DNA of 64,000 nt from a virus: positions 1 to 64,000 of the IMG/VR virus record IMGVR_UViG_3300032782_000005; one strand, given 5' to 3'. Of the stretch, positions 2,021-57,912 are shown piece by piece. A program made the translations under genes and the position numbers. How positions within the stretch are numbered: the first letter of the stretch is position 1; each line of letters begins with the position of its first letter. The notes under the pieces were generated by a model. That model saw nothing but the letters and a program-made list of their open reading frames with translations. It did not search any database and was not told the DNA's origin.

Positions 2021-2065
2021 TATAAGTGAGAGTTTACATTTTCCTACTGGAAATTTTACCAGTTG
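2021..2065 (+). promoter_or_regulatory. TATAA box plus decayed copy of the 22-bp palindrome
   Basis: TATAAG at 2021 starts 23 bp before a diverged copy of the palindrome (2044-2065: CTACTGGAAA, TT, TTACCAGTTG). The same 23-bp spacing occurs at 34484 and 57868. It lies just after a stop codon and before the gene at 2063, so a promoter with an attached operator is plausible. The last three bases of the palindrome (TTG instead of TAG) form the proposed start codon of the next gene. Confidence 0.5.
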
Positions 2066-2950
2066 CCGCCAATCGTGCTAAACGTGATCCACACACGAGC
2101 CTCCCGAGCGGAGGTCGAGGCGGCGCTGCGCAATCTGCCCAGGCTGACCACAGGCTCGCCGGGAGGGGCTGGGGGGTTTGTCCGCGCGCTACAGGTCAGG
2201 ATCGGGCTGGCCCTCTTGCAGCACATCAAGGACGCCTTCATCGTCAAGGCCAGAGGTGGGACGGATGTGTGCGGGGACAAGTGGGCGCCTCTTTCCAAGC
2301 ACACGATTGCGTACTCGCGTTTACATCCCGACGCGAAGAAGGGAAACGTCGGGATGCGCCGGCACAAATTGCCCGGTGGAGGGACGATCGGTCACAACCC
2401 GGCGCGGCTAAAGGGACTGCTTCATCGCGTCGATTACCTTGGGCGCAAGAACCCCGGCCTGTCCGGTTATCACCCCTCGTGGGAACTGTCGCAAAAGAAC
2501 CGCGAGCGCTGGTGGGCGCTCTACCGGAAATTCAAGGCGAAGTATGGAGGGGATAAGCGAAGGGCCGCCGCCACGGCATGGGTCGTCCTCAAGACCGAGG
2601 GCAAAATCGACACGATCATGAGCAAGTTCGGCAACATGCAGGTAGATATCCTGCGTTCGACCGACCTCCTGTTTAACAGCCTCTCTCCCGGCGCCAAGGC
2701 CGACTCTGCCCCAATGTTCCCTCCCCACGTCGAGAAGCAGGTGTTCCGCAACGAGCCGGGCGACGTGATAGTCGGAACGAACCGGAAGTGGTCGTGGACG
2801 CATCATCACGGCGTCCCCGGCAAAATACCTCAGCGCCGTCTTTGGCCCGATCCCAGCCGTTGGACTGGAGAATGGTGGGCGTCCGTGATAGAACAGGCCC
2901 AGAAAGGCATTGCGGAAATCACGGCATACATCGTGGGGAGGATCAAGTGA
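2063..2950 (+). CDS. Phage virion morphogenesis (head/tail completion) protein
   Basis: 295 residues from a TTG start; GTG codons at 2075 and 2084 are alternatives and none has a clear ribosome site. The N-terminal part (IHTRASRAEVEAALRNL, GLALLQHIKDAFIVKARGG) and the C-terminal GVPGKIPQRRLWPDP followed by a helix resemble Mu gpG-like virion morphogenesis or tail completion proteins, which end in a conserved PARPxL-type motif. It precedes the likely tail chaperone pair. The TTG start lies inside a decayed palindromic repeat. Confidence 0.6.
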   Translation: MPPIVLNVIHTRASRAEVEAALRNLPRLTTGSPGGAGGFVRALQVRIGLALLQHIKDAFIVKARGGTDVCGDKWAPLSKHTIAYSRLHPDAKKGNVGMRRHKLPGGGTIGHNPARLKGLLHRVDYLGRKNPGLSGYHPSWELSQKNRERWWALYRKFKAKYGGDKRRAAATAWVVLKTEGKIDTIMSKFGNMQVDILRSTDLLFNSLSPGAKADSAPMFPPHVEKQVFRNEPGDVIVGTNRKWSWTHHHGVPGKIPQRRLWPDPSRWTGEWWASVIEQAQKGIAEITAYIVGRIK

Positions 2951-3357
2951 GCGCAGCCAACGGCGAGCGGATTCTGGACGTGGGGAGACAGGGCCGGATC
3001 AAGGTCCACTTCGGCGACGACACGGACCCCACCTTCTACATCGACGCCATCGAGGTCTACAACTCGTTCGCGGAGATGGACATGCAGTTCCGCGACGAGA
3101 AGGGAGAGTTTGACAAGACGAAGACGGCCGACTGGAACAAGGCGTGCTGGGGGTTCGTTCAACAGGTGGTTCTGGACCATCTGGCCGACCAGAAGGCCGC
3201 CGAGAAGATCAACGCCGGCATGTCCCTCACCGACGCCCGCCGGTTCCTCAAGCTGTTGCAGGAGGAGGCTAACAGGCTGATCCCTTTTTTCAGGCTCGAC
3301 TCGGCCGAAAGGCGGTCCTCGCCCGAGAGTTCGCCGACAGTCGCCTACTCCGAGTAG
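2947..3357 (+). CDS. Tail assembly chaperone-like protein, short (0-frame) form
   Basis: 136 residues from GTG; the start overlaps the previous stop (GTGA). The first 115 residues are acidic and helical, with a conserved-looking FYIDAIEVYNSF segment; the last 21 (RLDSAERR...) are poor in structure, as expected after a slippery site. The gene lies upstream of the tail tube and tape measure genes, as tail assembly chaperones do. A T-TTT-TTC heptamer at 3285-3291 would let some ribosomes enter the -1 frame (see the next entry). Confidence 0.65.
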   Translation: MSAANGERILDVGRQGRIKVHFGDDTDPTFYIDAIEVYNSFAEMDMQFRDEKGEFDKTKTADWNKACWGFVQQVVLDHLADQKAAEKINAGMSLTDARRFLKLLQEEANRLIPFFRLDSAERRSSPESSPTVAYSE

Positions 3358-3566
3358 ACGCCTTCACGGAGCAGGTGCTGTTCGCGGCGCTCCATCAGGC
3401 GCGAGCGTGGGAAAGACTTCACGACCCCGCGACGATGGGGGCCTACGGGATGAGGAAGGACGCCGTTCTGGAACTTGCGAAGCAGGCTGGCCACACCGAG
3501 GCCGAGGCCCAGAAGATCGCTTCCGACTGGGCGTGGAAGCGGAGCGAGTTGGAGATGCCGCACTGA
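2947..3566 (+). CDS. Tail assembly chaperone-like protein, -1 frameshift fusion form
   Basis: At 3285-3291 the mRNA reads T-TTT-TTC in the zero frame, a canonical X-XXY-YYZ slippery heptamer on which both Phe tRNAs re-pair after a -1 slip. The -1 frame then runs open from CAG at 3291 to the stop at 3566, adding 91 residues (QARLGRKAVLAREF ... ALHQARAWERLHD ... KIASDWAWKRSELEMPH). The fused product would be about 206 residues. This is the organisation of lambda G/GT tail chaperones. The second part has only a weak independent start (GTG at 3375). A downstream stem (CTCGG with CCGAG) may stimulate slipping. The frameshift itself is inferred. Confidence 0.65.
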
Positions 3567-4537: not shown

Positions 4538-5110
4538 TCAATGGGTGAGCGGCGTGTAGCGGCGAGTCGTCATGACGCCAATGGCTTGATAGATATCGGG
4601 ATGGCTGCGAGCCATTCGCTCATATTCGCGTTTTAGTTTCGCTGTGGAGGCGACAGGCCGAACCTGAAGGATTTCGCTGACAAGCCAGCGCTCGATGTCG
4701 CGGAAGTCGCCATTGAGAACGGCATCGTTGGTGAGGCGCGAAGTTGTGACTTTCCAGGCGGTGATGAGTTCCGACCGCCAGCGGTCCTTCTCCTTCGCCA
4801 TACCGCCAGAATGCGATGGGCCGTCGATCTCTACAAGAAGACGGGCGTTGCGGAAGTAAAAGTCTCCGAAGAACACGACGCTGGGGGCGACCTTGAAATA
4901 TTTCTGCCGTGTATATTGCAACGGCGAGGCGCAGCACCTTGGAAGACGCGACCGCATCTTGTCCACGATGCGGCAGAAGGCTCGCTCGGCGGGCGGGAAC
5001 GCCTTGAGCAGTTTCCGCTGGGTCTGAGCGATCCAATCAGAGAAGGCTTGCGTGATCGGCTCGCCGGTTTTAGCGAGTAGCCAAGAGGGGAGGGAAATGA
5101 CTTCGGCCAT
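4538..5110 (-). CDS. DUF559/Vsr-like endonuclease-fold protein (minus-strand moron)
   Basis: 190 residues on the minus strand. The centre reads SVVFFGDFYFRNARLLVEIDGPSH, with an acidic residue in the FGDFYF strand and E-x-D in LLVEIDG, the core of DUF559-type PD-(D/E)xK nuclease-like domains. The C-terminal half is helical. ATG at 5110 is preceded by a CGGAG ribosome site. The gene has its own TATAAT box (5152-5157) and an intrinsic terminator, and runs against all its neighbours, so it is an autonomously expressed accessory gene. Nuclease activity is inferred from the fold only. Confidence 0.7.
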   Translation of the reverse strand: MAEVISLPSWLLAKTGEPITQAFSDWIAQTQRKLLKAFPPAERAFCRIVDKMRSRLPRCCASPLQYTRQKYFKVAPSVVFFGDFYFRNARLLVEIDGPSHSGGMAKEKDRWRSELITAWKVTTSRLTNDAVLNGDFRDIERWLVSEILQVRPVASTAKLKREYERMARSHPDIYQAIGVMTTRRYTPLTH

Positions 5111-12723: not shown

Positions 12724-15230
12724 ACGACTGGCGCACGCAAGGACTGGAATTCGCCGCGCTCCTCTCTCGCGCTGTGCCTCACGCCGAGTCGCTGGAAGAG
12801 GCCGTCGCCGCCGTGGACATGGCGATGGCCAAAAACGGACAAAAGTTGGAGGAAGAAATTCCTACTGGTAATTTTACCAGTAGGCCGCCGTCTGACGTAA
12901 GCCTCGACGCATTCTTCTCTTACGACATTTTCTCCCGTCGCGCCCAGGGCGTTTTGAACCGCGCCATGGCCGCGATGAACGACCTTTCCGCCTCGGCCAG
13001 ACGGGAATTGAAGGCCGCCATCGGCAAGGAAACGCCTGCGGAGATCGGGCAGGCAGTCATTTCGTTCATTCGGCACTATCGCGGTCAACTTGCTGAACTA
13101 TTGGGCGCGACCAACCTGTCTGCCCTTCTGGCAGGGGCGCGGGAAGTGGCCGATAAATTGCCCCCTGTGCCGCTTCCGGGGCTGGGCAAGCCTCCGCCCC
13201 CATCTTTGCCTCCAGACGCGGCAGCGGGCCTCCTGGCGAAACTGGAGGCCATGCCGGAGATGGAGCGCGCGAAGGAGGTCTACAACCTGCCGGCGGATCA
13301 ACAGGAATGGGCCAAGCAGGCGCTGGCCGTCGGTACAGGTCCGCCCATGCCGCCGTTCACTCCGCCCTCGCCTCCGGCGGATTCTCCGGGCGCAATTCAC
13401 TTCCCAACCATCGAGGAGGCCGTCAAGGACTTGTCCGCTCGGAACGTCGTCTCGCGCGACCAGTACGACCGACTGGACGCAGCCGCGAGGCAGAAGGCGT
13501 TCACCGTTGCAGGAGTTGAATCTCAGGAGACGCTGACGAAGATCAGGGACGCCCTGGCCGAGGTCGTCGCCGAGGGCGCGGACGTGGAGGCGTTCCGGCG
13601 GAAGGTCATGGAGAGGGTCGAGCCGAACACTTTCATGAGTCCGGCTCACATGGACGTGGTTGCCAGAAGCAACATCCAGGCGGCGTTCTCGGACGGGCAG
13701 ATGGCAGTCCTGAATACGCCGTTCGTCCGAAGCGGCTTCCCGTACACGATGTACCATGCGATCCACGACGACCGCGTGCGGCACGACCATTTGGAACTGG
13801 AAAAACTCGGCATCCAAGGAACGAATATCTACCGGATTGACGATCCCGTTTTCCAGACGTTCCGCCCGCCTTGGGATTACAACGATAGATGTGGCTTCAC
13901 GCCGATGAGCGTGAAGTTCGCGGCGGAGAAGGGAATTGATGAGGCGAAGCGTTGGCTCGAAACGAACGTCGAGCCCTCCCCTCCCGCCTTCGTCTCCTGG
14001 CCATCTTTCCGCCCCCCGCCCGAGTTCCAGCGCGCCCTGGCCGGCGCGCCCCTGTCGATCCGGCTGTCGTTGCAGCCGATGGAGATCGACCTAGACGATC
14101 TCCGGGATATTGAACTGGCCGTCGGGGACTGGTCCCCACATCACGGAGACAAGGGAGGCGTCGGCTGGAAGAACAGCGCCACGGGAGAAATCCGTTACCA
14201 GAAGAACCGCCCCGGTACGCGAGGAGAGGGCGAGCAGCCAGGCGGAGCGAGGGTCTTTCGCCCGCACGATTACATCAACGCCATCCATCAGCACGTCCAG
14301 TCCGGGGACAAGACGCGGGCTCACAAGTCATGGCAGTCGGTGCCGAGGGAGCAACGTGCCAAGGTCGCGGCCGGGTTATCGTCGGAGGCAAAGAGCGCGA
14401 TCAGGGAAGCGGCTGGAGGAGCGAAGCCGGCTCCAAAGCCACAGCCGGCGCCACAACCGAAAGCTGCGCCACCGCCGGCCCCAAAACCAACTCCGCCGCC
14501 TTCACCACCATCCGCGCCGCCTCCGCAACAGGCGCCACAACCAGGATCGCCTGAGCGGATCAACGAGGCCGTGGCGGCTTCTGGCCTATCTCCGAAGGCA
14601 TCGGAATCGTTGCGCGGCGTGGCAGCGGCCTTGGCGGCGTCGAAGCACCTGACGCCAGAGCAGAGGAATCATTACTATTCAGCAGCGAAATCCGTGCTGT
14701 CCAGAATGACGCCGGCCGCCATAAACCGCTTCAGGGAAGGGGTGAAGCAGGTTGAATTCCATCCAAATTTAGATACTCTTACGGCGTCTTTTACGAAGGT
14801 ATCTGGAAAATCTGTTGAGGGGACTGTTTTAGGTTTTTACGCATGGAAAACACAAATGCTGTCATTGGATGGCGGCAAAGATGTCCAGATGCGAGCAGAA
14901 GACGTGGTGCCAATGACTGGAGAAACGCATCAGACTTATGCTCATGAATTCGGACATGTCATCGACGGACCGCAAGAGGAATACAGCAGCTCAGTTGATT
15001 GGAGGGCGGCATGGTTGCTGGAACTGGTCGCCCCTTCTGCGCCTGAACGCAACATTCTCACCGGGTACGCCACGACGCATCCGGCGGAAGGATTCGCCGA
15101 ATTCAGCCGTTTGCTTCATGGCATTGGCGAGAGGCCGATGAACGCAGCCGAATTGAACGTTGTGGAGTCCGCATTCCCGAGTTGCAGCGCCTTCTGGAAA
15201 GCGAAGGGATTATGGCCGAGCCCCCAGTAA
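12720..15230 (+). CDS. Mu F-like head morphogenesis protein fused to a zincin metallopeptidase
   Basis: 836 residues, GTGA overlap with the portal. Residues about 300-410 hold the Mu F/SPP1 gp7 core (HMDVVARSNIQAAFSDGQ, HDDRVRHDHLELEKLGI, PPWDYNDRCGFTPMS). A Pro/Ala/Lys linker (about 568-612) leads to a C-terminal domain with HEFGH at 742-746 and a downstream ThPAEGFAEFS segment, the HExxH plus glutamate layout of zincin peptidases. A perfect copy of the palindromic repeat is read in frame at residues 48-55 (TGNFTSR). The peptidase part (14660-15080) is clearly richer in A/T than the rest, suggesting separate acquisition. Such polyvalent head proteins can be injected with the DNA; that is inference here. 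Confidence 0.75.
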   Translation: MNDWRTQGLEFAALLSRAVPHAESLEEAVAAVDMAMAKNGQKLEEEIPTGNFTSRPPSDVSLDAFFSYDIFSRRAQGVLNRAMAAMNDLSASARRELKAAIGKETPAEIGQAVISFIRHYRGQLAELLGATNLSALLAGAREVADKLPPVPLPGLGKPPPPSLPPDAAAGLLAKLEAMPEMERAKEVYNLPADQQEWAKQALAVGTGPPMPPFTPPSPPADSPGAIHFPTIEEAVKDLSARNVVSRDQYDRLDAAARQKAFTVAGVESQETLTKIRDALAEVVAEGADVEAFRRKVMERVEPNTFMSPAHMDVVARSNIQAAFSDGQMAVLNTPFVRSGFPYTMYHAIHDDRVRHDHLELEKLGIQGTNIYRIDDPVFQTFRPPWDYNDRCGFTPMSVKFAAEKGIDEAKRWLETNVEPSPPAFVSWPSFRPPPEFQRALAGAPLSIRLSLQPMEIDLDDLRDIELAVGDWSPHHGDKGGVGWKNSATGEIRYQKNRPGTRGEGEQPGGARVFRPHDYINAIHQHVQSGDKTRAHKSWQSVPREQRAKVAAGLSSEAKSAIREAAGGAKPAPKPQPAPQPKAAPPPAPKPTPPPSPPSAPPPQQAPQPGSPERINEAVAASGLSPKASESLRGVAAALAASKHLTPEQRNHYYSAAKSVLSRMTPAAINRFREGVKQVEFHPNLDTLTASFTKVSGKSVEGTVLGFYAWKTQMLSLDGGKDVQMRAEDVVPMTGETHQTYAHEFGHVIDGPQEEYSSSVDWRAAWLLELVAPSAPERNILTGYATTHPAEGFAEFSRLLHGIGERPMNAAELNVVESAFPSCSAFWKAKGLWPSPQ
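12862..12883 (+). repeat. 22-bp palindromic repeat, copy inside the Mu F-like gene
   Basis: Perfect arms CTACTGGTAA and TTACCAGTAG around TT; the inverted symmetry extends one more base each side (C and G). It is preceded by AAATTC. It is translated as TGNFTSR and disrupts nothing in the reading frame. Confidence 0.95.
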
Positions 15231-21836: not shown

Positions 21837-23090
21837 ATGAAGCCCTGCGGCCATCCCCCGGACCAGCCCGTCGAATCCTGCCGTGTGTGTTTCTTGTACT
21901 CCACCCGCCTCGACTACCGCGCCCTCTGGGACGCTACTGGTAATTTTACCAGTAGAAAATTGTCGTATCTCAAATGCGCCTTTTTAAGCCGCCGCGCCCG
22001 CAACGAAGACGGCACGGTGAAGACGCGAGCCTGCGCCCCCTGCGGCGGCAAACAACTGGAGGTATTCCGGTGCGTCTGTCCGTCGCTTAGAATCGGCGAA
22101 TCGGATCACGAGACGACGCTGGCCGAATGCGAGACGTGCCCACACAGGACGAGGGGAACGATGCCCGACGCGCGGAAACTGATCCTCAGGAACCACCTTT
22201 CCCCCGGCGACGTTCTCGTGATGACCGCCGCGATCCACTCGCTGCACAAGGCGCACCCCGGAAGGTTCCGGATCGCCGTCGATACAGCCTGCCCGGCGAT
22301 CTTCGAGAACAGCCCGGAGGTCGAGCCGCTGGATAAGGCGCGCGAGGAGAAATGGGAGGAAATGGATACGCATTATCCTTTGGTGAACGAGTGCAACCAG
22401 AGGGGCATCCATTTCATGCAAGCGTACTGCTCATATTTCGAGGACAATCTGCAAGTCCGCGTTCCACTGGCGACGAACAGGCCGATGGTGTGGCTCAGCG
22501 CCGAGGAGAAGGGCTGGATGAATCAGGTCGAGGAGGCGTTCAAATACAAGGGGAGGTTCTGGCTCGTCAACGCCGGGCGAAAGAATGACTACACCTGCAA
22601 GCACTGGGGAACGGAATCCTTCCAGCGCGTCGTCGATTCACTCCGGGGCAAGGTCGTGTTCGTGCAAGTCGGCGCGGCAGAGCATCATCATCCACCGCTC
22701 AGGAACGTCCTGAACCTCGTCGGCAAGACCGACCTGAGGCAATTGATCCGCCTCTGCTGGCACGCGGACGGCGTTCTGTGCGGCGTGACGATGCTCCACC
22801 ATTTGGCGGCGGCCCTGGAAAAACGCTGCGTGACGATCATGGGCGGGCGCGAGCCGGTCCAATGGAACTCGTACCCTCGTTGCCAACTCCTGCACACCAT
22901 CGGCTCGCTCTCCTGCTGTCGAGACGGAGGGTGCTGGAAGTCGCGCGTCATCGCCCTGCCCGACAACGCCGAACAGAACAACTCGCTTTGCGAGCAACCT
23001 CAACCGGGCGACGAACCGATTCCCCGTTGTATGAGCCTTATCCGCCCCGACGACGTGGCGTCGAAGGTCGCGCTCTTGACGACGGCATGA
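21837..23090 (+). CDS. GT9-family glycosyltransferase (heptosyltransferase-like)
   Basis: 417 residues. The N-terminal 95 residues are Cys/His-rich (CGHPPDQPVESCRVC, CAPCGGKQLEVFRCVC, CETCPHR), probably a zinc-binding module seen in planctomycete proteins. The rest follows the GT9 layout: LILRNHLSPGDVLVMTAAIHSLHKAHPGRF, FWLVNAGRKNDYTCKHWG, VVFVQVG, NLVGKTDLRQLIRLCWHADGVLCGVTMLHHLAAALEK, which is the donor-site motif of ADP-heptose transferases. A palindromic repeat is read in frame after RALW (TGNFTSR). It heads the glycosylation island and has a leaderless-type start. Confidence 0.75.
   Translation: MKPCGHPPDQPVESCRVCFLYSTRLDYRALWDATGNFTSRKLSYLKCAFLSRRARNEDGTVKTRACAPCGGKQLEVFRCVCPSLRIGESDHETTLAECETCPHRTRGTMPDARKLILRNHLSPGDVLVMTAAIHSLHKAHPGRFRIAVDTACPAIFENSPEVEPLDKAREEKWEEMDTHYPLVNECNQRGIHFMQAYCSYFEDNLQVRVPLATNRPMVWLSAEEKGWMNQVEEAFKYKGRFWLVNAGRKNDYTCKHWGTESFQRVVDSLRGKVVFVQVGAAEHHHPPLRNVLNLVGKTDLRQLIRLCWHADGVLCGVTMLHHLAAALEKRCVTIMGGREPVQWNSYPRCQLLHTIGSLSCCRDGGCWKSRVIALPDNAEQNNSLCEQPQPGDEPIPRCMSLIRPDDVASKVALLTTA
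21934..21955 (-). repeat. 22-bp palindromic repeat, copy inside the GT9 gene
   Basis: Perfect arms around TT (+ strand). The A/T flank AATTTT lies on the minus side, so the element is inverted relative to 12862. It is translated as TGNFTSR in a linker between the Cys-rich N-terminal segments. Confidence 0.95.
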
Positions 23091-33318: not shown

Positions 33319-34478
33319 AGACCGCGCTGCCGCTGAAGGACACGTTCACGTCCACGGGGCACAAATTTTTTGCCCATCAGGAAACGATGCGCAACTTGCG
33401 GAACGGCAAGGGTCAGCCGGTCGTCACGCACTTGATGCCCACATCGGTCTGCGCTCACTCTTGCGCCTTCTGCTCCGTCCATCATCGCCCGCACGAGGTT
33501 CTGCCGCTGGCCGACATGACGACCTATCTCGACATCCTGCTCCGCTACGGCCTGAAGGCGGTCATCATCAGTGGCGGCGGCAACCCGATCTTATACAGGT
33601 GCCCCGACACGGGAGCCGACTTCAACCGGCTTGTCGATGAGGTCTATCGGCGGGGACTGGAGATCGGCGTCATCAGCGACGGAATGCCATTGCGAGTTGA
33701 CGAGCCGACGATGCGGCAGATGTGGAAGGCTGTGCATCCGGAGACAATCGACAAGTTGACTTGGCTGCGGATCAGCATGGCCGGCTTGGATCACCAGGAG
33801 AACTGCGTCCACGTCCCAGACGTGGACCCGTCACGGACGACGCTGGGCTTTTCCTACGTCCTGCATGACATCTATGACGAACCGGCGGATAAGGCTCACG
33901 GCAAAGTATCCACGCCAGCCGACCTCATCACCGTCGGTTACGAACGACTGCATAACGACAACATTAAGCCAGTTCGGTTCGCCGAGGACCGCGTTCCGGT
34001 GCTGACCAGCCAGATCGACGAGATCGTGCGGAAGTACAAACCGACCTATGTTCGATTGCTCCCGAACTGCTTGCAACCGGAGCTGATCCAGCAGCGGTGC
34101 GATCTGCTCCAACGGATGGCCGACGCCATCGACCCGGACGTGGTGTTCGTGCAGTACAAGCCGCCGGCCGCGCCGAATGTATGCCTGCTCGGCAGCATTC
34201 ATCCAGTCCTCAATACAGATGGTTTTTGTTATCCTTGCGACAGCTGTGTATTAAACGACTCAGCAGGTCACAAATTCGCCAACCCATGGAGGATGTGTCA
34301 CTGGAGCGAGATCGCCAGCATCTACGAAAGACCGCTCCGCAGCCTGATAGATAACCCACATGAGAGATGTCCAGGGTGCGTATTTACCCAAAGCAACCTC
34401 TTGCTGGAAAAGGTGTGGAAGGGCGAGGTCGAGCCGACGCCTCCGGTCGAGACGCCGGAGCACGTCAACTTCGTCTAA
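33315..34478 (+). CDS. Radical SAM enzyme with SPASM-like C-terminus
   Basis: 387 residues from GTG. MPTSVCAHSCAFCSVHH is the CxxxCxxC cluster motif; VIISGGGNP follows as the glycine-rich strand. The C-terminal part has a second Cys set (GFCYPCDSCVLND, MCHW, CPGCVFTQ), typical of SPASM-type auxiliary clusters. Substrate not predictable; in the island it may modify a sugar or a peptide. It is followed by the promoter-like palindromic element. Confidence 0.8.
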   Translation: MKTALPLKDTFTSTGHKFFAHQETMRNLRNGKGQPVVTHLMPTSVCAHSCAFCSVHHRPHEVLPLADMTTYLDILLRYGLKAVIISGGGNPILYRCPDTGADFNRLVDEVYRRGLEIGVISDGMPLRVDEPTMRQMWKAVHPETIDKLTWLRISMAGLDHQENCVHVPDVDPSRTTLGFSYVLHDIYDEPADKAHGKVSTPADLITVGYERLHNDNIKPVRFAEDRVPVLTSQIDEIVRKYKPTYVRLLPNCLQPELIQQRCDLLQRMADAIDPDVVFVQYKPPAAPNVCLLGSIHPVLNTDGFCYPCDSCVLNDSAGHKFANPWRMCHWSEIASIYERPLRSLIDNPHERCPGCVFTQSNLLLEKVWKGEVEPTPPVETPEHVNFV

Positions 34479-34483
34479 AGAAG

Positions 34484-34528
34484 TATAATAGCTATCGTTA
34501 AATTTCCTACTGGTAAAATTACCAGTAG
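34484..34528 (+). promoter_or_regulatory. Promoter-like box plus perfect palindromic repeat
   Basis: TATAAT at 34484, the small palindrome ATAGCTAT (34488-34495), an 11-bp gap, then the perfect 22-bp palindrome (34507-34528, AA core). The same ATAGCTAT-11 bp-palindrome order is seen at 57868-57912. It fills the gap between a stop codon and the next genes, suggesting an operator-controlled promoter. No clear -35 box is seen. Confidence 0.6.
34507..34528 (+). repeat. 22-bp palindromic repeat, intergenic copy
   Basis: Perfect arms around AA, preceded by AAATTTC. Intergenic, 13 bp before the first ATG downstream. Confidence 0.95.
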
Positions 34529-43871: not shown

Positions 43872-43893
43872 CTACTGGTAAAATTACCAGTAG
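43872..43893 (-). repeat. 22-bp palindromic repeat, intergenic copy
   Basis: Perfect arms around AA (+ strand). The AATTTT flank is on the minus side, so it is inverted relative to 34507. It lies 75 bp upstream of the RHH gene. The gap 43772-43967 also holds the next promoter and nothing else recognised. Confidence 0.95.
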
Positions 43894-43932
43894 AAAATTA
43901 TCCCCTCTCATTTATAGCACATCAAGCTCCTC

Positions 43933-47032: not shown

Positions 47033-47658
47033 AGATAATTGAGTGCGAGCAGGGCAGTTCTGAGTGGTTTGAGGCTCGAAAAGGCGTTCCGACAGCTTCA
47101 AGATTCGGCATGGTCCTGACTGCGAAGACGATGCGCTTATCGGCCCAGGCCGACGAACTCATAAACCAACTTATAGGAGAAAAGTTATCTCTGATTCCGC
47201 CCGAAGGCGTTGAGCATTTTACAAATCGCGCTATACGCTGGGGCGAGCAGACCGAGGACGAGGCGCGCGCTTGGTATTCGCTAGAGACGAACCATGATGT
47301 GCAGCAGGTCGGCTTTTGCCTCACCGACGACGGACGTTTCGGCTGTTCGCCTGACGGCCTGATTGGCGACGACGGCGTTTTGGAGTTGAAGTGCCCCCAG
47401 GCGGCGACCCAGGTGTCCTATCTGCTGGCAGGCGGCCTTCCCAGCGAATATCGCGCCCAGTGCGCCGGCGCGTTGATCGTCACAGGCCGTCCATGGCTCC
47501 ATTTTGTCTCGTACTCGCCCGGCCTGCCGCCATTGCTCGTCAAGGTCCAACGGGACGAATACGTGGAAAAACTCGCCGCCGCCCTGGAGGAATTCCACAT
47601 CCGCTACCAGGACGCCCTCGAACGCATCACGTCGATGGGTGGAGGGAGGGGCGAATGA
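47029..47658 (+). CDS. yqaJ-like: YqaJ-type viral recombinase (alkaline exonuclease)
   Basis: 209 residues, ATGA overlap with the HNH gene. SEWFEARKGVPTASRFGMVL and GFCLTDDGRFGCSPDGLIGDDGVLELKCP contain the catalytic D and E-x-K of lambda-exonuclease-like nucleases. It resects double strands for the ERF annealer: together they form the phage Red-like recombination system. The first 60 codons are A/T-rich next to the HNH insertion. Confidence 0.9.
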   Translation: MKIIECEQGSSEWFEARKGVPTASRFGMVLTAKTMRLSAQADELINQLIGEKLSLIPPEGVEHFTNRAIRWGEQTEDEARAWYSLETNHDVQQVGFCLTDDGRFGCSPDGLIGDDGVLELKCPQAATQVSYLLAGGLPSEYRAQCAGALIVTGRPWLHFVSYSPGLPPLLVKVQRDEYVEKLAAALEEFHIRYQDALERITSMGGGRGE

Positions 47659-48041
47659 ACGTCGGCGATCTGACCCACCGGCAGCGCGAATTCCTGTGCG
47701 CCATCTGGGATTTTCTCGTCTACCAGGGCGAGTATCCCACCGTGCGGCAACTATGCGATCTCCTAGACATCAATTCGCCCAACGGCGTCATGAGTCACAT
47801 CATGTATTTGAAGAAAAAGGGCTTTGTGGAATGGCACGGCAAACATCGTGGCGTCGGCGATGGGCGGCCTTCACGGGCGCGCTGCGTCCGCCTCAGCGGC
47901 GTTCGGATGAGACCCGTTTTTGACGACACATTGGATGGCCAGGAGATGCGCAAGGTGATCTGCGAGCCTGTCTGCGCAGCAACCGCTGGCCCTCATGAGT
48001 CGTCAGCGTCGGCCATGACAGGAGAACCCGAATTAGCTTAA
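47655..48041 (+). CDS. LexA-type winged helix protein without protease domain
   Basis: 128 residues, ATGA overlap. LTHRQREFLCAIWDFLVYQGEYPTVRQLCDLLDINSPNGVMSHIMYLKKKGFVEW is close to the LexA N-terminal DNA-binding domain. The C-terminal half lacks the Ser-Lys protease and is low in known motifs. It could act as a constitutive repressor or a dominant LexA mimic. Candidate binder of the palindromic repeats. The start of the next gene is 60 bases downstream. Confidence 0.75.
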   Translation: MNVGDLTHRQREFLCAIWDFLVYQGEYPTVRQLCDLLDINSPNGVMSHIMYLKKKGFVEWHGKHRGVGDGRPSRARCVRLSGVRMRPVFDDTLDGQEMRKVICEPVCAATAGPHESSASAMTGEPELA

Positions 48042-48100: not shown

Positions 48101-49159
48101 ATGGCAGTTGCAGCACGATCGGTGCCGATCTCCAAAATTCGTCTCAGCGACGGTACGCAGACGCGCGTGAAGACCGACCCGGATGTCGTGGCGGACTACG
48201 CGGAACACGCGCAGGAGCTTCCGCAGGCCGAGGGCGAGGACCCCATCGTTCTCTTCACCGAGGACGAGGAGGCGTACTGGCCCGGCGCGGGTCATCACCG
48301 CATCCCGGCTCTGGCAAGCGCCGGCTACGAACACATCAAGGCCGACGTGCGCAAAGGGACGCAAAGGGACGCAAAGCTCTACAGCCTGGGCTCCAACGCC
48401 GCCCACGGCCTTCAACGGACGCGCGCCGACAAGCGCCACATGATCGAAGCCTTGTTGGAAGACGACGAGTGGTCGCAATGGTCCAGCCGCGCCATCGCCG
48501 ATCACCTGCACGTCTCCCACCCTCTCGTCGAGGAAGTCCGGGCTGGCAAAAATGGACAAATGGGAGAGGATAAAAAATCAACTGGTAAAATTTCCAGCAC
48601 CCGCACCTCCAAGTCGGGGAAGCAGGTGCCGGCCTCGCGCGGCCCAAAATGCCCGAAGTGCGCCAAGGCAAAGGAGCGCGACCCCAACTGCGCCGCGTGC
48701 AAGAAGCTTCAGGACGAGGCGGAGAAGAAGCGGACGGCCGCTCAGTTCGAGAAGGACCGCCTCAAGCAGGAGCAGGCTGAGAAGAAGGCCCAACGCGAGC
48801 GAGCTGCGCGCGAGGTCAAGGAGCGTCGGGAGGCTGAGAAGGAAAAGAAGGCCGAGGCCCGGCGTCTCGCAGCCGAGCAGAAGGCGCGCGAACGCGAGGA
48901 GGAGAAAACCCGCAAGGAGGTCGCCAAGGCGCAAAGGGAACTGGCCGCCGAAACGCGCCGCAAGGAACGAGAGGCGATGGCGACGGGCAAACCGATTTAC
49001 GACGACCCCAAGGTCCACGCCGCGATCATCGGCCTGTCCCGCCTGTTCAACGACCGGGCTACGGCGTTGAAACAGCAGAAATCCCTCCTGTTCGCCGCCG
49101 TGCGGCAGGGGATGGACATTGTTCTAAAGGCGTGGGAAGCGTGGAGGAAGGCCAAATGA
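48101..49159 (+). CDS. ParB/sulfiredoxin-fold protein with HTH and coiled coil
   Basis: 352 residues. VPISKIRLSDGTQTRVKTDPD ... PIVLFTEDEEAYWPGAGHHRIPALASAG is the ParB N-terminal domain with GHHR in place of the usual GERR/GxxR motif. Residues about 105-150 (SSRAIADHLHVSHPLVEEVR) form the ParB-type HTH. A zinc-ribbon-like PKCPKCAKAKERDPNCAACKK is followed by a very long Lys/Glu/Arg coiled coil and a C-terminal helix pair. A decayed palindromic repeat is read in frame right after the HTH. No ParA is visible. Suggests a DNA-bound regulator, possibly of the repeats. Confidence 0.7.
   Translation: MAVAARSVPISKIRLSDGTQTRVKTDPDVVADYAEHAQELPQAEGEDPIVLFTEDEEAYWPGAGHHRIPALASAGYEHIKADVRKGTQRDAKLYSLGSNAAHGLQRTRADKRHMIEALLEDDEWSQWSSRAIADHLHVSHPLVEEVRAGKNGQMGEDKKSTGKISSTRTSKSGKQVPASRGPKCPKCAKAKERDPNCAACKKLQDEAEKKRTAAQFEKDRLKQEQAEKKAQRERAAREVKERREAEKEKKAEARRLAAEQKAREREEEKTRKEVAKAQRELAAETRRKEREAMATGKPIYDDPKVHAAIIGLSRLFNDRATALKQQKSLLFAAVRQGMDIVLKAWEAWRKAK
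48579..48600 (+). repeat. Decayed copy of the palindromic repeat
   Basis: CAACTGGTAA, AA, TTTCCAGCAC: four differences from the consensus. Read in the ParB-like gene as STGKISST, the same phase as the in-frame copies at 12862 and 21934. The gene lies close to the candidate binders. Confidence 0.6.
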
Positions 49160-52465: not shown

Positions 52466-52666
52466 ATGCCCCAGAATGCAGAGGGCGCCATTGCCGGTCA
52501 TTATCGCGCTAGACTGGCGATTCGCTCCCAGGCAGAGATCGCAGCCTCTTGGGGCGTCTCGCGGGCGCGCGTGGAGCAGATCGAGCAGACGGCGCTCGCC
52601 AAACTCCGTCGGCATCCGGTGATGCGAAGATTGGCGAAAGAGTACGGAATCGAAATACAGGAGTGA
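52466..52666 (+). CDS. Sigma region 4-like HTH protein, 66 aa
   Basis: ATG after AATCACG. RSQAEIAASWGVSRARVEQIEQTALAKLRRH is like sigma70 region 4.2 (helix-turn-helix contacting the -35). Only region 4 is present, so it may modify host polymerase specificity (similar to other phage region-4 appropriators) or act as a repressor. A good candidate for control of the repeated phage promoters. Confidence 0.6.
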   Translation: MPQNAEGAIAGHYRARLAIRSQAEIAASWGVSRARVEQIEQTALAKLRRHPVMRRLAKEYGIEIQE

Positions 52667-52669
52667 CCC

Positions 52670-52912
52670 ATGCGAGCCTTCTGGACCCCGCCCTTCCTGT
52701 TCGACCCGATCCCCGTCAACCTCGTCGGCAAGGAGTTGGTCGGGGAGTTCGGAGTCGTGCCGCTCAACGAGGAAATCGTGGTCGTCAGGGACGTTTCGGG
52801 TGGTGAGGAGGAGCCTTGGCGCGACCTGCATCTCCTGATCGACAAAGGCTACTGGAACACCCGCATCGCCCTGGAGTCTGAAATCAGCAAAGGAGTCTTC
52901 CCATGCGTCTGA
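52670..52912 (+). CDS. Hypothetical protein, 80 aa
   Basis: ATG after a GGAGTGACCC stretch. Mixed alpha/beta (VVPLNEEIVVVRDVSGGEE, DLHLLIDKGYWNTRIAL). Overlaps the clamp gene by ten bases. Unknown function. Confidence 0.45.
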   Translation: MRAFWTPPFLFDPIPVNLVGKELVGEFGVVPLNEEIVVVRDVSGGEEEPWRDLHLLIDKGYWNTRIALESEISKGVFPCV

Positions 52913-54033
52913 GCATTCCCCGCGCGCTCCTGGCCAAGGCCGTCGGGCTTGTGGCCCGAGCGCTGCCGTCCAAGTCCATCAAGCCGATCCTCGACGGCAT
53001 CCTGATCCGGGCCACCGATAAACTCTCTCTCTTCGCCACCGACCTCGAAATCGGCTGCCGCGCCGAGACATTCGTACTGGAGGTCGAGGAGCCCGGCGAG
53101 CCCGGCGAGGCAATTCTTCCAGGCGAGCAGATCGTCAAACTTCTCTCCGAAACGGACGACGAGCGCGTCAGGATCGAGGCCAACGAGAAGGACGTTCGCG
53201 TCGTGACGGACTCGGCGGACTTCCACCTGCCCGCGAGCAATCCAGCGGACTTCCCGCTCTGGCCCGATTTCCCGACCGAGAAGCGTCACGAAATCGCCGC
53301 CGACGAATTGGCGACCTTGATCCGCCATGCCATATTCGCGGCAGCGAAGAAGGGAGGCGCGGTCGGCGCGTTCGCCTTCACTGGCGTCGGCTGGAGTTGC
53401 GGAGAAGGGAAACTGGAACTGGCGGCGATGGACAGATACCGCTGCGCCGTGGATGAGCGCCCCTGCGCGGCGTTCAACGGCCATAGACCGGAAAAGATTC
53501 CGGTCGTGCCAAGAAAAGCGATGGACCTGCTCGCCTTGATGGTCAGCAATGCCGAGAAGGATGATGTCGCCTCGGTGAGTTTCCGCCCTAACGACGCACT
53601 CTTCCGCTGCGGCGGCTTCTCGGTTTACACGAGGCTGATCGCCGGCTGCTTCATTGAAGTAGCGAGGCAACTACCAAAGGGAAAGCACGACGAGGCTGTC
53701 ATCAACGCTGCCGCACTCGCCAAAGCATTGAAACAGGCCCGCCTTACGACCGGCGCAGAATGGGACAACCGCGTCGTCTTCTCGTTCGCGAAGAACCGGC
53801 TTACGCTGGAGAGTCAGGGTAAAGGCCGCTCCAAGATCGAACTGGCCTGTGGTTGGACTTCCAAGGACATGAAGGTCGCCATCCCGCCCGAGCGCGTCTC
53901 CGACTTTCTCGCCATCCTCGATGAAGGCGCGGAGATCAGGATGCAGATATTCTCCCCCGACGCGCCCATCCTCTGCCGGGTCGGGGAAACGCACCGATTC
54001 TTGGTCTCCCCATTGGCCATGACGAAATCCTGA
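52903..54033 (+). CDS. dnaN: DNA polymerase III beta sliding clamp
   Basis: 376 residues, the normal length. It shows the three-domain repeat of bacterial clamps: MRLSIPRALLAKAVGLVARAL, KPILDGILIRATDKLSLFATDLEIGC, DFHLPASNPADFPLWP, AMDRYRCAVDERP, and the end VSPLAMTKS. A phage-encoded beta clamp would recruit host or phage polymerase to its replisome. No polymerase or clamp loader is visible. Followed by a promoter for the fibre module. Confidence 0.9.
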   Translation: MRLSIPRALLAKAVGLVARALPSKSIKPILDGILIRATDKLSLFATDLEIGCRAETFVLEVEEPGEPGEAILPGEQIVKLLSETDDERVRIEANEKDVRVVTDSADFHLPASNPADFPLWPDFPTEKRHEIAADELATLIRHAIFAAAKKGGAVGAFAFTGVGWSCGEGKLELAAMDRYRCAVDERPCAAFNGHRPEKIPVVPRKAMDLLALMVSNAEKDDVASVSFRPNDALFRCGGFSVYTRLIAGCFIEVARQLPKGKHDEAVINAAALAKALKQARLTTGAEWDNRVVFSFAKNRLTLESQGKGRSKIELACGWTSKDMKVAIPPERVSDFLAILDEGAEIRMQIFSPDAPILCRVGETHRFLVSPLAMTKS

Positions 54034-54063
54034 TTGCACCGACCCCCCATTCTCGCCTATCCT
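54034..54063 (+). promoter_or_regulatory. Sigma70-like promoter, leaderless type
   Basis: TTGCAC (54034-54039), 18-bp spacer, TATCCT (54058-54063), then seven bases to the ATG at 54071; no ribosome site. Starts at the stop of the clamp gene, so it begins the second fibre module. Confidence 0.55.
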
Positions 54064-54070
54064 CTCTCTC

Positions 54071-54274
54071 ATGCACCAACCGCGCCTGGACGTGAGCGTC
54101 GTGGCTGAAAGAAGGCCCGATGGACGGTACGAGGTCTTCTTGTACGACCCAGGAGACCATCGCGCCGCCAAGATTGGGCACGTCGTCGAGCCGTGGGAAA
54201 AGGACGCGACGATGGCCAGGATCGCGGATCAGGCGCGGGCCAACGGAATGCGCGTCACGTTCCGAACCGTATAG
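54071..54274 (+). CDS. Hypothetical protein, 67 aa
   Basis: Leaderless-type ATG. Beta strands (LDVSVVAERRPDGRYEVFLYD, HVVEPWEKDATMARIADQA) and a short end. Soluble; unknown. First gene of the fibre module. Confidence 0.5.
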   Translation: MHQPRLDVSVVAERRPDGRYEVFLYDPGDHRAAKIGHVVEPWEKDATMARIADQARANGMRVTFRTV

Positions 54275-54294
54275 CACTTCTTCAAGGAGCCTCT

Positions 54295-54582
54295 ATGCAG
54301 CAGCGACTTGATCTCGTTTTCACCGTCCCCGTGGCCGGTCTATTGACTGAGTCGCAATTCACCGTCCCCACGCAGGAACCGAACGCTGGCTCCTACCAAC
54401 TGCCCTCGCCGACTGGCGGCGTCGCACCATACTCATGGGGCATCACGCCTGGCCAGACGCCGCCGACGGGCTGGGCGATCTCCGCAAGCGGTCTGCTATC
54501 GTGGACGGCCGCCGCCGGTGCTGCCGCCGCCGGCACGACCGTTACCGTGAACTGGGTCAGCGTCTACGACAGCGGGAGTTGA
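54295..54582 (+). CDS. Ig-like structural protein, 95 aa
   Basis: ATG after AAGGAGCCTCT. LPSPTGGVAPYSWGITPGQTPPTGWAISASGLLSW matches the pattern of 'putative Ig' (bacterial Ig-like) domains, and TVNWVSVYDSG completes the sandwich. Such domains decorate capsids or fibres by binding carbohydrate. Confidence 0.65.
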   Translation: MQQRLDLVFTVPVAGLLTESQFTVPTQEPNAGSYQLPSPTGGVAPYSWGITPGQTPPTGWAISASGLLSWTAAAGAAAAGTTVTVNWVSVYDSGS

Positions 54583-54583
54583 C

Positions 54584-55957
54584 ATGCGACAGCGCCATGA
54601 CCTGTCGCCGTTTGGTGTGGCATTCGCAAGCGGCGGCAAGCCGCTGCTCCAGCCGTCCGACTTTACCTATCTCGGCTCCTATCCCGTAGCCGGCGGGGGC
54701 GGCGTCGGCAACGGGTTGGGGTCGGGCAATGGGTTGGTGCTGCGCTACGTCGGTGGGCAGTTGCGGTTTCTGACGCAGGCGTACAACGGCGGTGCTTACG
54801 ATCTCGTGGAGTTCACGCTGCCGGGCTCCTTCGGCACGTATATCAATAGTCGCGTCACGCGCTGGGCCGGGGCGGGACTGTGGGCAAAAACGCCTGACAA
54901 CCAATCTCCGCGAGCGGCGACAGGTTTATTCTGGGACCCGAACACGGCGGGGCTTCTGTGGAGCGTCTGGGGGCCGGACTATCCCAGCAGCACTTACCAC
55001 GAGAATGACCCGAGCAATAACAACTACTACTGGTCTGTGCAGACCCGGCAATTGACGGACGGCAACCCCGGCACGGTCTCCGGGTTGACTGGCCTGTTCG
55101 GCTTCACCGGGATCAATAGCCGCTTCGTCAAGGGCGGCGTTCAGCCCGTGCCGTCCTGGGTGCAGACGCAGTACGGCGTCGGGCCTTACGCCTACGGCTG
55201 GGGCGGCTACCAATCGACGAAGACGGTCGGCCCGGTCTCTTTTGGTCTGGCGATGCTGCTGGGCAAGGCCATCACGACTTACAGCAATCCCAACACTCTG
55301 ATTCCGACGGTCGACTTCAAGATCGCCGCGGATCACCGTGCGGCGGCCATAACAGGCGACTGGTACACGAACCCCGGCAGTCCGTCTCAACTGGACCGAG
55401 GCCAGCGGGCGTCGGACGTATTGAATTACTTCAACGATCCCAGCTATCCGAGCAACCCGGCGACGTTCCCGGCCGGCTACGGCAATCCTCACACCGGCTC
55501 GCAATGGCTTTCCCCGGCTCCCGATGGGCAGGGGCGTTGGGTGGATGGCGACAACTACTGGTCCACGGGCGTCAGCATCGACGGCCCGAACAAGCAGGGG
55601 TTCTTGGCGGTCGGCTGGACCAGCACGGGCAAGGCGTATTACGCCGGCTCGACCATCAATTTTGACGGCAAACATGCCGAGCTGCATTGCTTCGATTGGA
55701 ACATGTTGGGCAAGGCGGCGACGGGACAACTCAACCCGTGGAACGTGCAGCCGTCGTGGGCGAAGCTTCTGGACGCCGACCTGAAACCGCTGGGGCCGCA
55801 AGTGCTGACGGCCGGCTACCAGAGTGGGCTGGGTGGACCTGGAACAGGGGTCGGGGCTGCGGTATTCGACCCGACGACGAAGCGGCTGTACGCGTGGATT
55901 CCGGCGGCGCAGACCAGCGGGGATTGCGCCTTGGCGTGCTACTCCGTGAACTGCTGA
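54584..55957 (+). CDS. Large beta-rich fibre/receptor-binding protein, 457 aa
   Basis: ATG one base after the previous stop. Repetitive Gly, Tyr, Trp and Asn-rich sequence (FTYLGSYPVAGGGGVGNGLG, TGLFWDPNTAGLLWSVWGPDY, WVDGDNYWSTGVSIDG, AVFDPTTKRLYAWIPAAQTSG) suggests a beta-propeller or beta-helix. The HCFDWNML region resembles repeated blades. A tail spike-like or host-contact role is the best guess. Confidence 0.55.
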   Translation: MRQRHDLSPFGVAFASGGKPLLQPSDFTYLGSYPVAGGGGVGNGLGSGNGLVLRYVGGQLRFLTQAYNGGAYDLVEFTLPGSFGTYINSRVTRWAGAGLWAKTPDNQSPRAATGLFWDPNTAGLLWSVWGPDYPSSTYHENDPSNNNYYWSVQTRQLTDGNPGTVSGLTGLFGFTGINSRFVKGGVQPVPSWVQTQYGVGPYAYGWGGYQSTKTVGPVSFGLAMLLGKAITTYSNPNTLIPTVDFKIAADHRAAAITGDWYTNPGSPSQLDRGQRASDVLNYFNDPSYPSNPATFPAGYGNPHTGSQWLSPAPDGQGRWVDGDNYWSTGVSIDGPNKQGFLAVGWTSTGKAYYAGSTINFDGKHAELHCFDWNMLGKAATGQLNPWNVQPSWAKLLDADLKPLGPQVLTAGYQSGLGGPGTGVGAAVFDPTTKRLYAWIPAAQTSGDCALACYSVNC

Positions 55958-55963
55958 GGCAGC

Positions 55964-57862
55964 ATGGGCTTTCCGGGAACAGGTCCGTTCGCGCACAAGG
56001 GGGCGGCGTCCTCTAACACGAACAACGTCACGACGGCCGGCATCGACACGACCGGGGCCGATCTTTTGATCTGCCTTGTGGCGACATACATCGGAGGCCC
56101 TTCGCCGACGTTGACGGATTCGGTCGGCGGCAACAGCAATAGCTGGACAAAGTACGGCGAACACACTGGCGGCGGCGGCAACGACGCGGGCCGCATCACG
56201 ATATTTTACTGCCAGGCCCCGGCCCACGTCGGCTCGGGGCACACGTTCACGGCGACCTCTACAGGCGGCTACCCGGCGATCAACGTGCAGGCGTGGACGG
56301 GCAGTGCATCAACTCCTGCGGACGGAACCAACGGGGCGACGGGCGCTGGCATCACGTCGCTGGCCACGGGCAACGTGTCGCCGACTCAGGACGGCGATTT
56401 ATTGGTGTCCGGCTGCTGCATCGGCAGCAGTCTGGCTCCCACGTCCATCGACAGCGGCTTTACCTACATCACCGCCGATAAGATCACGAACGCCGGAAAC
56501 AACGAGGGCTTGGGCGGGGCGTGGCTGGTGCAAGGGGCGCATGCAACGGTCAATCCGACATGGAGTTTCAGCACCGCAAATCAGGTCGCTGTGAACGTGG
56601 CGGCGTTCAAGGGATCGCCAGCGGCAAGCAGTTCTTCCGTTTTGAGCAGCAGTTCGTCGATTAGGGCGTCCCCGTCATCCTCGCCATCTTCGTCCCTTTC
56701 GGTCGCGCCGCCGTCCTCAAGTCCTTCGCCATCCGCCAGCGTCCTTCCATCAAGTAGCCCTTCCAGCGCATTGCCGTCCGCATCACCAAGCCCATCGAGC
56801 AGCATTGCGGTTTCGCCGTCGCCAAGCGCTTCCCCAAGTCCATCCAGCAGCGGGCCATCCTTAACAAGCCCAGCCATTGCGCCGTCGAGCAGTCCAAGCC
56901 CATCGCCTTCTCCGTCGAGCCCTTCTCCTTCTGCGAGCGCTTCGCCCAGCGCAGCGAAGAGTCCGTCAGCATCGCCATCAGTCAGTCCTTCGTCGTCGCC
57001 ATCGACTAGTCCGTCGGTCAGCGCATCCGTATCAACTTCAGCGTCTCTAAATCCGTCTGTGAGCGCCGCGCCGTCCGTTTCTTCCTCGTCGTCGCTGAGC
57101 AGTTCCCTGATCGTCTCGGCGAGTCCCCGGGTCAGTTCATCGTCGCCTAGTCCATCATCGAGCCTCGGTCCATCTGCGTCGGCCAGCGCATCTCCGAGCA
57201 AGAGCGTGGCGCCATCTTCCTCAGCGAGTCTGTCGTCATCCCTGTTCGTGGCCCCATCTGTTTCATCCAGCAGTGGACCGTCTCCGTCCGTCTCGATCAG
57301 CGCCTCTGTCGCATCCTCACGCGCCCCGAGCAGCCTGTCGTCAATTATCTCAATCTCATCGAGTGTTTCGCCAAGTGCGTCGGTCAGCCCATCGGCCAGC
57401 GCCTCGGCTTCACCCTCAGTCTCGTCGGCTAAAAGCCCGTCAGCGAGTCCATTCGCCTCGTCGTCGCCGTCTGTCGTGGCATCGTCCGGCTCTCCATCAC
57501 CGTTTTCCAGCAAGATAAGCCCGTCGAGCAGCCTGAGCAGCATCTTCGCCGTCCCAAGTTCATCGCTGCTGTCGAGCCTGAGTCCGTTCAGCCTTAGCAT
57601 TTCCTCGCTGAGTCCGTCTCCGCGCTCGTCGCCATCTATTTCCCCAAGCAGTCGGTCGCCGGCCTCGCTCCCCTCGATCTCACCTGTCTCATCCTCAGCC
57701 GCCTCGGCGTCGAGCGCGCAGCCCGTGATCCTCATTGGAGCCCTCGTTCTGGATAAGCTATATTTCGATTCTGTCGTGGTGGACCATGGGAAGTTCGAGA
57801 CGCCGGTGCTCGACAAGGCGGCGTTCGTCTCGACCATTGTTGACAGGGCCAAACTACCCTAA
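55964..57862 (+). CDS. Fibre/adhesin with 370-residue Ser/Pro/Ala tract
   Basis: 632 residues. An N-terminal beta domain (residues 1-220; LICLVATYIGGPSPTLTDSVGG, RITIFYCQAPAHVGSGHTFT) precedes about 365 residues made almost only of Ser, Pro, Ala and Val (56630-57720), built from TCG, AGC and CCN codons. A short C-terminal end QPVILIGALVLDKLYFDSVV may be a trimerisation tip. The Ser tract is a candidate for phage or host O-glycosylation. The minus strand here is also open because of the codon bias but is not coding. Confidence 0.65.
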   Translation: MGFPGTGPFAHKGAASSNTNNVTTAGIDTTGADLLICLVATYIGGPSPTLTDSVGGNSNSWTKYGEHTGGGGNDAGRITIFYCQAPAHVGSGHTFTATSTGGYPAINVQAWTGSASTPADGTNGATGAGITSLATGNVSPTQDGDLLVSGCCIGSSLAPTSIDSGFTYITADKITNAGNNEGLGGAWLVQGAHATVNPTWSFSTANQVAVNVAAFKGSPAASSSSVLSSSSSIRASPSSSPSSSLSVAPPSSSPSPSASVLPSSSPSSALPSASPSPSSSIAVSPSPSASPSPSSSGPSLTSPAIAPSSSPSPSPSPSSPSPSASASPSAAKSPSASPSVSPSSSPSTSPSVSASVSTSASLNPSVSAAPSVSSSSSLSSSLIVSASPRVSSSSPSPSSSLGPSASASASPSKSVAPSSSASLSSSLFVAPSVSSSSGPSPSVSISASVASSRAPSSLSSIISISSSVSPSASVSPSASASASPSVSSAKSPSASPFASSSPSVVASSGSPSPFSSKISPSSSLSSIFAVPSSSLLSSLSPFSLSISSLSPSPRSSPSISPSSRSPASLPSISPVSSSAASASSAQPVILIGALVLDKLYFDSVVVDHGKFETPVLDKAAFVSTIVDRAKLP

Positions 57863-57867
57863 AGGGG

Positions 57868-57912
57868 CACAATAGCTATCTCACAATTTCCTACTGGTAA
57901 TTTTACCAGTAG
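57868..57912 (+). promoter_or_regulatory. Promoter-like box plus perfect palindromic repeat
   Basis: CACAAT then ATAGCTAT (57872-57879), 11 bp, and the 22-bp palindrome (57891-57912, TT core), the same layout as at 34484. It follows the stop of the fibre gene and precedes the gene at 57926. Confidence 0.6.
57891..57912 (+). repeat. 22-bp palindromic repeat, intergenic copy
   Basis: Perfect arms around TT, preceded by AATTTC; in the same orientation as 12862 and 34507. Ends 13 bp before the ATG downstream. Confidence 0.95.

What the first reader, a model, noticed from the sequence alone, without database searches (positions are those of the whole stretch)
2044..57912. Dispersed 22-bp palindrome family spread through the phage
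Five perfect copies of arms CTACTGGTAA and TTACCAGTAG around AA or TT (12862, 21934, 34507, 43872, 57891) plus two decayed ones (2044, 48579). Chance cannot explain five identical 20-bp palindromes in 64 kb of GC-rich DNA. Spacing between perfect copies is about 9-14 kb. Most copies have an AATTT(C/T) flank on one side, whose direction alternates along the genome. Possible roles: operator/stoperator, ParB-type centromere, recombinase crossover site (10-2-10 layout with a 2-bp asymmetric core, as in serine recombinase sites), or a mobile palindrome.
Basis: seen in the sequence. Interest (0 to 1): 0.88.

Follow-up and report, generated by a model that had tools for sequence, protein, structure and literature searches.

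The report
Evenly spaced palindromic phage DNA element
A newly sequenced bacterial virus carries nine copies of one 54-base DNA element, each ending in an almost perfect 22-base palindrome, spaced about every 9,000 bases around its circular genome; it looks like a landing site for a DNA-binding protein of the virus, most likely a LexA-like regulator, but that binding has not been tested.

Summary
The five perfect copies and the two decayed ones are at the stated coordinates. The complete 79.4-kb circular virus record adds one more perfect copy (70236) and a two-mismatch copy (64659), nine in all. The palindrome is only the right part of a 54-bp element: a 32-bp AT-rich asymmetric left part is also conserved (z = 15, sharp edge at -32), and nothing is conserved to the right. 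A profile of the element gives nine hits of 52-74 bits and no other site above 9.1 bits. Spacing round the genome is more even than chance (p = 0.0003). Copies lie between genes and inside four coding frames, in both orientations, with depressed GC3. Relatives sharing the structural genes lack the copies; in two host genes the linker has not changed length, so those copies are not insertions. No recombinase was recognised. The variant copies break the hairpin without compensation. This fits a DNA site for a dimeric protein. The outer arms, TACTG-N10-CAGTA, have the layout of the E. coli LexA box, and the phage encodes a stand-alone LexA DNA-binding domain (gp71), the best candidate binder; ParB-like proteins are the main rival. 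Binding is inferred, not shown.

The parts
2012..2065 (+). element 1 (54 bp; palindrome 2044-2065, 2 mismatches), between genes 3 and 4; overlaps the TAA of gene 3 and supplies the probable TTG start of gene 4
   Evidence: 66.5 bits; absent from relative G001, where the genes abut
12830..12883 (+). element 2 (perfect palindrome 12862-12883), inside gene 21 (Mu gpF-like head protein), reads KNGQKLEEEIPTGNFTS
   Evidence: 66.3 bits; G004 homologue has a nearly unchanged linker length; GC3 0.37 against 0.70
21934..21987 (-). element 3 (perfect palindrome 21934-21955), inside gene 34 (GT9-like glycosyltransferase), antisense to the gene
   Evidence: 68.7 bits; GC3 0.37 against 0.81
34475..34528 (+). 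element 4 (perfect palindrome 34507-34528), starts at the stop codon of gene 47, upstream of an HNH endonuclease gene
   Evidence: 73.6 bits; HNH
43872..43925 (-). element 5 (perfect palindrome 43872-43893), mostly non-coding stretch
   Evidence: 68.7 bits
48547..48600 (+). element 6 (decayed palindrome 48579-48600, 4 mismatches), in the linker of gene 72 (ParB-like)
   Evidence: 52.0 bits; linker length nearly unchanged in homologues, modelled as coil; GC3 0.32 against 0.81
57859..57912 (+). element 7 (perfect palindrome 57891-57912), starts at the stop codon of the short ORF 87
   Evidence: 70.7 bits. Elements 8 and 9 lie beyond the window in the same record: G000 64627-64680 + and 70236-70289 -
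47655..48041 (+). gene 71, stand-alone LexA DNA-binding domain (128 aa, no S24 peptidase match); best candidate binder (inferred)
   Evidence: PF01726 E 1.5e-12 over the curated cut-off; TIGR00498 E 2.6e-10, DNA-binding part only, below its cut-off; phmmer to LexA 3k2z E 1.5e-6 and 1lea
48101..49159 (+). gene 72, ParB-like protein with HTH and long coiled coil; rival candidate binder
   Evidence: tblastn to annotated phage parB-like proteins, best E 9e-20; no Pfam, PHROG or PDB sequence match
52466..52666 (+). gene 79, sigma-70 region 4 protein (66 aa), possible transcription factor for the left part
   Evidence: PF04545 E 1e-7

Best explanation
The feature is a 54-bp composite DNA element repeated nine times round a circular phage genome. 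Shown: its anatomy, copy number, even spacing, presence inside coding frames, and absence from relatives. Inferred: the palindrome is the site of a dimeric winged-helix protein of the phage, most likely gp71, a stand-alone LexA-type DNA-binding domain. The half-site TACTGG at CTG-N10-CAG spacing is that of a LexA box with an altered inner sequence. The 32-bp AT-rich left part would be a second contact for the same protein or a partner such as RNA polymerase or gp79. Bound at about nine evenly spread sites, the protein would set transcription of the whole genome, as a roadblock or operator in stoperator fashion, or as an activator like GIL01 gp6.
For: Nine discrete copies of 52-74 bits; the next-best site other than the same palindromes read the other way is 9.1 bits. 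Palindrome nearly invariant while the left part is diverged, so it is not merely recent copying. DNA-level constraint within four genes: GC3 0.32-0.37 against 0.65-0.81, in both orientations. None of the changed arm positions in the three variant copies keeps a Watson-Crick pair, one leaving only a T-G pair, which argues for DNA rather than an RNA hairpin. Spacing even, p = 0.0003. Outer arms TACTG...CAGTA coincide with the textbook E. coli SOS box in the same register (about 1 in 1,000 for five bases at a fixed centre; my estimate). gp71 is a LexA DNA-binding domain over Pfam's cut-off with SPN kept in the recognition helix (SPNGVMSH against SPNAAEEH). A phage-encoded truncated LexA homologue binding its own palindrome is established: GIL01 gp6 (PMC6182141).
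Against: No site lies at the start of gene 71, so no obvious autoregulation. The residues matching E. coli LexA Glu44 and Glu45 are Met and Ser. Planctomycete LexA is reported not to use the E. coli motif (PMC3108266), and the host looks planctomycete. The left part is unexplained by LexA. Other phages with LexA-like domains showed no comparable dispersed palindromes. No lysogeny module was found. LexA was chosen after seeing the palindrome, so the match is partly post hoc.
Confidence: 0.4

Rival explanations
1. Dispersed ParB-type loading sites: gp72, gp111 or gp112 (ParB-like) bind the palindromes and spread or clamp from each one, silencing or organising the genome, as KorB does from O_B sites on plasmid RK2.
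For: Three ParB-like proteins; gp111 matches Noc sequences weakly; even spacing of about 8.8 kb suits a spreading protein. KorB works over kilobases from O_B sites (PMC11790492).
Against: No ParA was found in the searches made. Known ParB-family sites are 13-16 bp (own knowledge), shorter than 22. gp111 and gp112 are absent from G001 although the neighbouring genes are present, and phage ParB-like proteins are often not partition proteins.
Confidence: 0.25
2. A phage-specific promoter class: the left part holds a -10-like box reading towards the palindrome, which is an operator or activator site.
For: TATAAT, TATAAG and TATAAA at -23 to -18 in three copies; elements 1, 4 and 7 start at gene ends ahead of co-directional genes; gp79 is a sigma region-4 protein.
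Against: The in-gene and reversed copies mostly have no good -10 box (ACAAAA, CGCATT, CATTTT); I saw no -35 box at a fixed distance; 70236 would read antisense through gene 109.
Confidence: 0.17
3. A mobile palindromic mini-element (REP, RPE or PATE-like) that spreads by insertion.
For: Discrete 54-bp unit; at 70236 the 57-bp gap is missing from G001, where genes abut, and at 2044 a 44-bp gap is missing; 54 is a multiple of 3.
Against: Copies in genes 21 and 72 have almost no length change against homologues; spacing too even; left part far more diverged than the palindrome; no Y1 or other transposase recognised.
Confidence: 0.08
4. An RNA hairpin: processing, termination or antitermination signal.
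For: Folds to a stable hairpin in four of five copies tested.
Against: Variant copies break pairs without compensation; no T-tract; no Rfam match; three copies have the left part in reverse orientation.
Confidence: 0.05
5. Recombinase crossover sites with a 2-bp core.
For: 10-2-10 layout.
Against: No recombinase found; the core reads TT six times and AA three times relative to the flank.
Confidence: 0.02

Closest known systems
LexA (SOS) box of E. coli type, TACTG(TA)5CAGTA
   Same: 20-bp palindrome, identical outer TACTG...CAGTA, CTG-N10-CAG spacing; a LexA DNA-binding domain is encoded by the phage
   Different: inner sequence GTAAWWTTAC; a 32-bp conserved left part; copies inside genes and far from DNA-repair promoters; the candidate binder has no S24 peptidase match
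GIL01 gp6 (truncated LexA homologue) and its P3 site
   Same: phage-encoded stand-alone LexA DNA-binding domain acting on a palindromic site (PMC6182141)
   Different: one reported site overlapping a -35 box, GaCACAC GTGTGaC, not nine dispersed copies
Stoperators of Cluster A mycobacteriophages (L5)
   Same: many repressor sites spread through a phage genome, in promoters and short intergenic gaps (PMC9283540)
   Different: 13-bp asymmetric sites bound by a monomer and oriented with transcription; here a 22-bp palindrome, mixed orientation, also inside genes, no clear lysogeny module
KorB O_B sites of plasmid RK2
   Same: dispersed palindromic sites of a ParB-family regulator acting at a distance (PMC11790492)
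   Different: shorter TTTAGCSGCTAAA core, plasmid with its partner KorA; binder here unknown
Dispersed centromeres of phage-plasmid N15 (own knowledge)
   Same: several palindromic sites scattered in a phage genome
   Different: N15 has a ParA/ParB-type sop system; no ParA found here

Membership tests
LexA operator | palindrome with CTG-N10-CAG half-site spacing | tested here: met
   all nine copies keep CTGG/CCAG at that spacing
LexA operator | a LexA-family DNA-binding protein in the same genome | tested here: met
   gp71, PF01726 E 1.5e-12, over cut-off
LexA operator | full LexA with S24 autopeptidase (SOS-cleavable) | tested here: not met
   gp71 matches only the DNA-binding part; host LexA unknown
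LexA operator | protein binds the site and represses | not testable with these tools
   needs EMSA or footprinting
Mycobacteriophage-type stoperators | many sites through the phage genome, including outside promoters | tested here: met
   nine sites
Mycobacteriophage-type stoperators | asymmetric site oriented with transcription | tested here: not met
   palindrome; three of nine left parts reversed
Mycobacteriophage-type stoperators | lysogeny repressor | tested here: inconclusive
   no CI-like repressor or integrase found; gp71 is the only repressor-like HTH seen
ParB-parS or KorB-O_B | ParB-family protein with HTH | tested here: met
   gp72, gp111, gp112
ParB-parS or KorB-O_B | ParA partner | tested here: inconclusive
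   no ParA match in the searched proteins, but not all proteins were searched, and KorB-like regulators need none for silencing
Serine recombinase sites | cognate recombinase and polar 2-bp core | tested here: not met
   none found among the searched proteins; polarity inconsistent
REP/RPE/PATE mobile palindromes | clean insertion against empty sites | tested here: not met
   gap at two intergenic sites but almost no length change in genes 21 and 72

The most novel reading that the evidence does not exclude
A genome-wide system of nine evenly spaced 54-bp DNA elements, written into coding linkers where no gap was available, that a phage-encoded protein uses to organise or silence the whole phage genome at about 9-kb intervals rather than to control single promoters.
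Probability: 0.25. Interest if true: 0.78.

Novelty: new variant of a known kind. Interest (0 to 1): 0.6.

Why it matters
Dispersed, regularly spaced sites for one phage protein are rare. If the binder is gp71, this would be a phage regulon built on a stand-alone LexA domain. If it is a ParB-like clamp, it would be a phage counterpart of RK2 long-range silencing. Either way the element gives a strong, specific handle on gene control in phages of a little-studied host group, and single binding assays can decide it.

Tried and rejected
Exact 22-mer in IMG/VR: no contig other than possibly this genome, which may be left out. In 84,980 species genomes: one Paraburkholderia hit that is part of a longer unrelated hairpin. 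The 18-bp core in IMG/VR: 40 contigs, one copy each, many within repeat-rich coding-like sequence, without the left part. Rfam and tRNA scans: nothing. Relatives were sought with gp20, gp21, gp71, gp74, terminase and capsid; only terminase and capsid found useful ones. G004 has its own unrelated promoter-like repeats. Four other phages with LexA-like domains: no dispersed palindrome family like this. Near-palindromes at 71107, 40169 and 53487: probably chance. The gp71 model is of low confidence (pLDDT 55), so no fold search was run. Host LexA motif: no planctomycete genome could be reached.

Full report
What was checked. The seven reported copies exist at the stated places. Shuffled sequence gives none at up to three mismatches. 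The window is part of a 79,484-bp virus record with a 127-bp terminal overlap, so probably a complete circular map. The rest of the record holds a perfect copy at 70236 and a two-mismatch copy at 64659, so nine copies in all.

The real unit is larger. With the copies turned so that the AATTTTC flank is on the left, positions -32 to -1 are conserved as well (letter-shuffle z = 15.1). Conservation stops at -32 (z = 0.5 for -40 to -33) and nothing is conserved to the right of the palindrome. A profile of the 54 bp scores 52-74 bits at nine places. Apart from the same palindromes read the other way, the best remaining site scores 9.1 bits. The left part has only 7-24 of 32 identities between copies, whereas six of nine palindromes are perfect. 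A recently copied mobile sequence would not diverge on one side only, so the palindrome is held by selection or conversion.

It acts at the DNA level (inferred). Four copies lie in open frames: gene 21 (Mu gpF-like), gene 34 (glycosyltransferase, antisense), gene 72 (ParB-like) and a 224-aa frame at 64181-64855 that my gene caller missed. In all four the stretch uses AT-ending codons (GC3 0.32-0.37 against 0.65-0.81 in the rest; 0.5-5% of same-length stretches of the gene are as low). In the three variant palindromes none of the altered arm positions keeps a Watson-Crick pair, which speaks against an RNA hairpin, although the RNA would fold in most copies. The centre is always AA or TT.

Spacing. 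The nine gaps are 4.7-12.6 kb. Their coefficient of variation, 0.28, is reached by random placement with p = 0.0003 (0.0005 without the decayed copy). The copies do not follow gene-module borders, which favours a genome-wide role.

Relatives. Four IMG/VR contigs share the structural genes (G001-G004); none has the palindrome at up to three mismatches. At 2044 and 70236, G001 has the two genes abutting, so this phage has 44 and 57 extra bases there. In gene 21, the G004 homologue has a linker of nearly the same length without the element. In gene 72, three homologues likewise show no length change beyond a few residues, and the gp72 model is coil there. So these two in-gene copies are not insertions. 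They were probably written into variable linkers by mutation or conversion. The relatives are fragments or distant, so absence of gp71 or gp72 from them is not informative.

Which protein. I noticed that TACTG-N10-CAGTA is the outer sequence and register of the textbook E. coli LexA box. Independently, gene 71 encodes a 128-aa protein with a LexA DNA-binding domain (PF01726, E 1.5e-12; LexA structures by phmmer) and no peptidase match. A phage-encoded truncated LexA that binds its own palindrome and activates late genes is known, GIL01 gp6 (PMC6182141). Against it: no site at gene 71 itself, two of the recognition-helix positions differ from E. coli LexA, and planctomycete LexA is said not to use the E. 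coli motif (PMC3108266). The rival binders are three ParB-like proteins (gp72, gp111, gp112). KorB on RK2 shows how a ParB-family protein can silence from dispersed sites (PMC11790492). gp79, a sigma region-4 protein, might read the left part, which holds TATAAT-like hexamers in some copies only.

What it is not, as far as tested. No recombinase, integrase or transposase family was matched by the proteins searched, and the core polarity is inconsistent. It is not a classical stoperator, since those are asymmetric and oriented with transcription (PMC9283540).

Verdict. Real, strong, and specific to this phage lineage as far as the collections show. Shown: anatomy, number, spacing, DNA-level constraint, and absence from relatives. 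Inferred: dimeric protein site (about 0.8), gp71 as the binder (about 0.4), genome-wide control as the purpose. Filed as a new variant of dispersed operator systems.

Noticed in passing
window 948-1871: Protein begins MKPRLERLEDRTTPS, a pattern I associate with planctomycete (Gemmata-like) proteins; suggests the host phylum. Not tested.
   Followed up: partly
window 24815-38175: Large sugar or glycosylation module: two nucleotidyltransferase-type heptose proteins, aminotransferase, GT9-like, radical-SAM-like and methyltransferase genes.
   Followed up: no
window 34609-35301, 46418-47032, 6620-7120 and 4538-5110; G000 76568-77446: Several HNH, endonuclease VII or DUF559-like free-standing endonuclease genes; the ones at 4538 and 76568 are missing from relative G001 between conserved neighbours.
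   Followed up: partly
window 23917-24216: Phage-encoded GroES (Cpn10).
   Followed up: no
window 40215-41618: Secreted papain-like cysteine protease-like protein with a C-terminal proline-rich tail (weak PHROG peptidase match).
   Followed up: no
G000 71107-71128 (in gene 111): CTTCCGGCAAATTTACCGGAAG, a near-palindrome five mismatches from the family, inside a ParB-like gene; may be chance.
   Followed up: partly
L056 11654-18228 (G004 51654-58228): Relative G004 has its own repeated promoter-like sequence (TGATGAGCCAAGTATGTAATTACCC, five copies) and a pair of 113-bp repeats that end in different palindromes.
   Followed up: partly
L064 12275-12339: Three tandem palindromes AGTGCCATCGTGGCACT at 24-bp spacing in a contig picked up by a weak gp71 match.
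   Followed up: no
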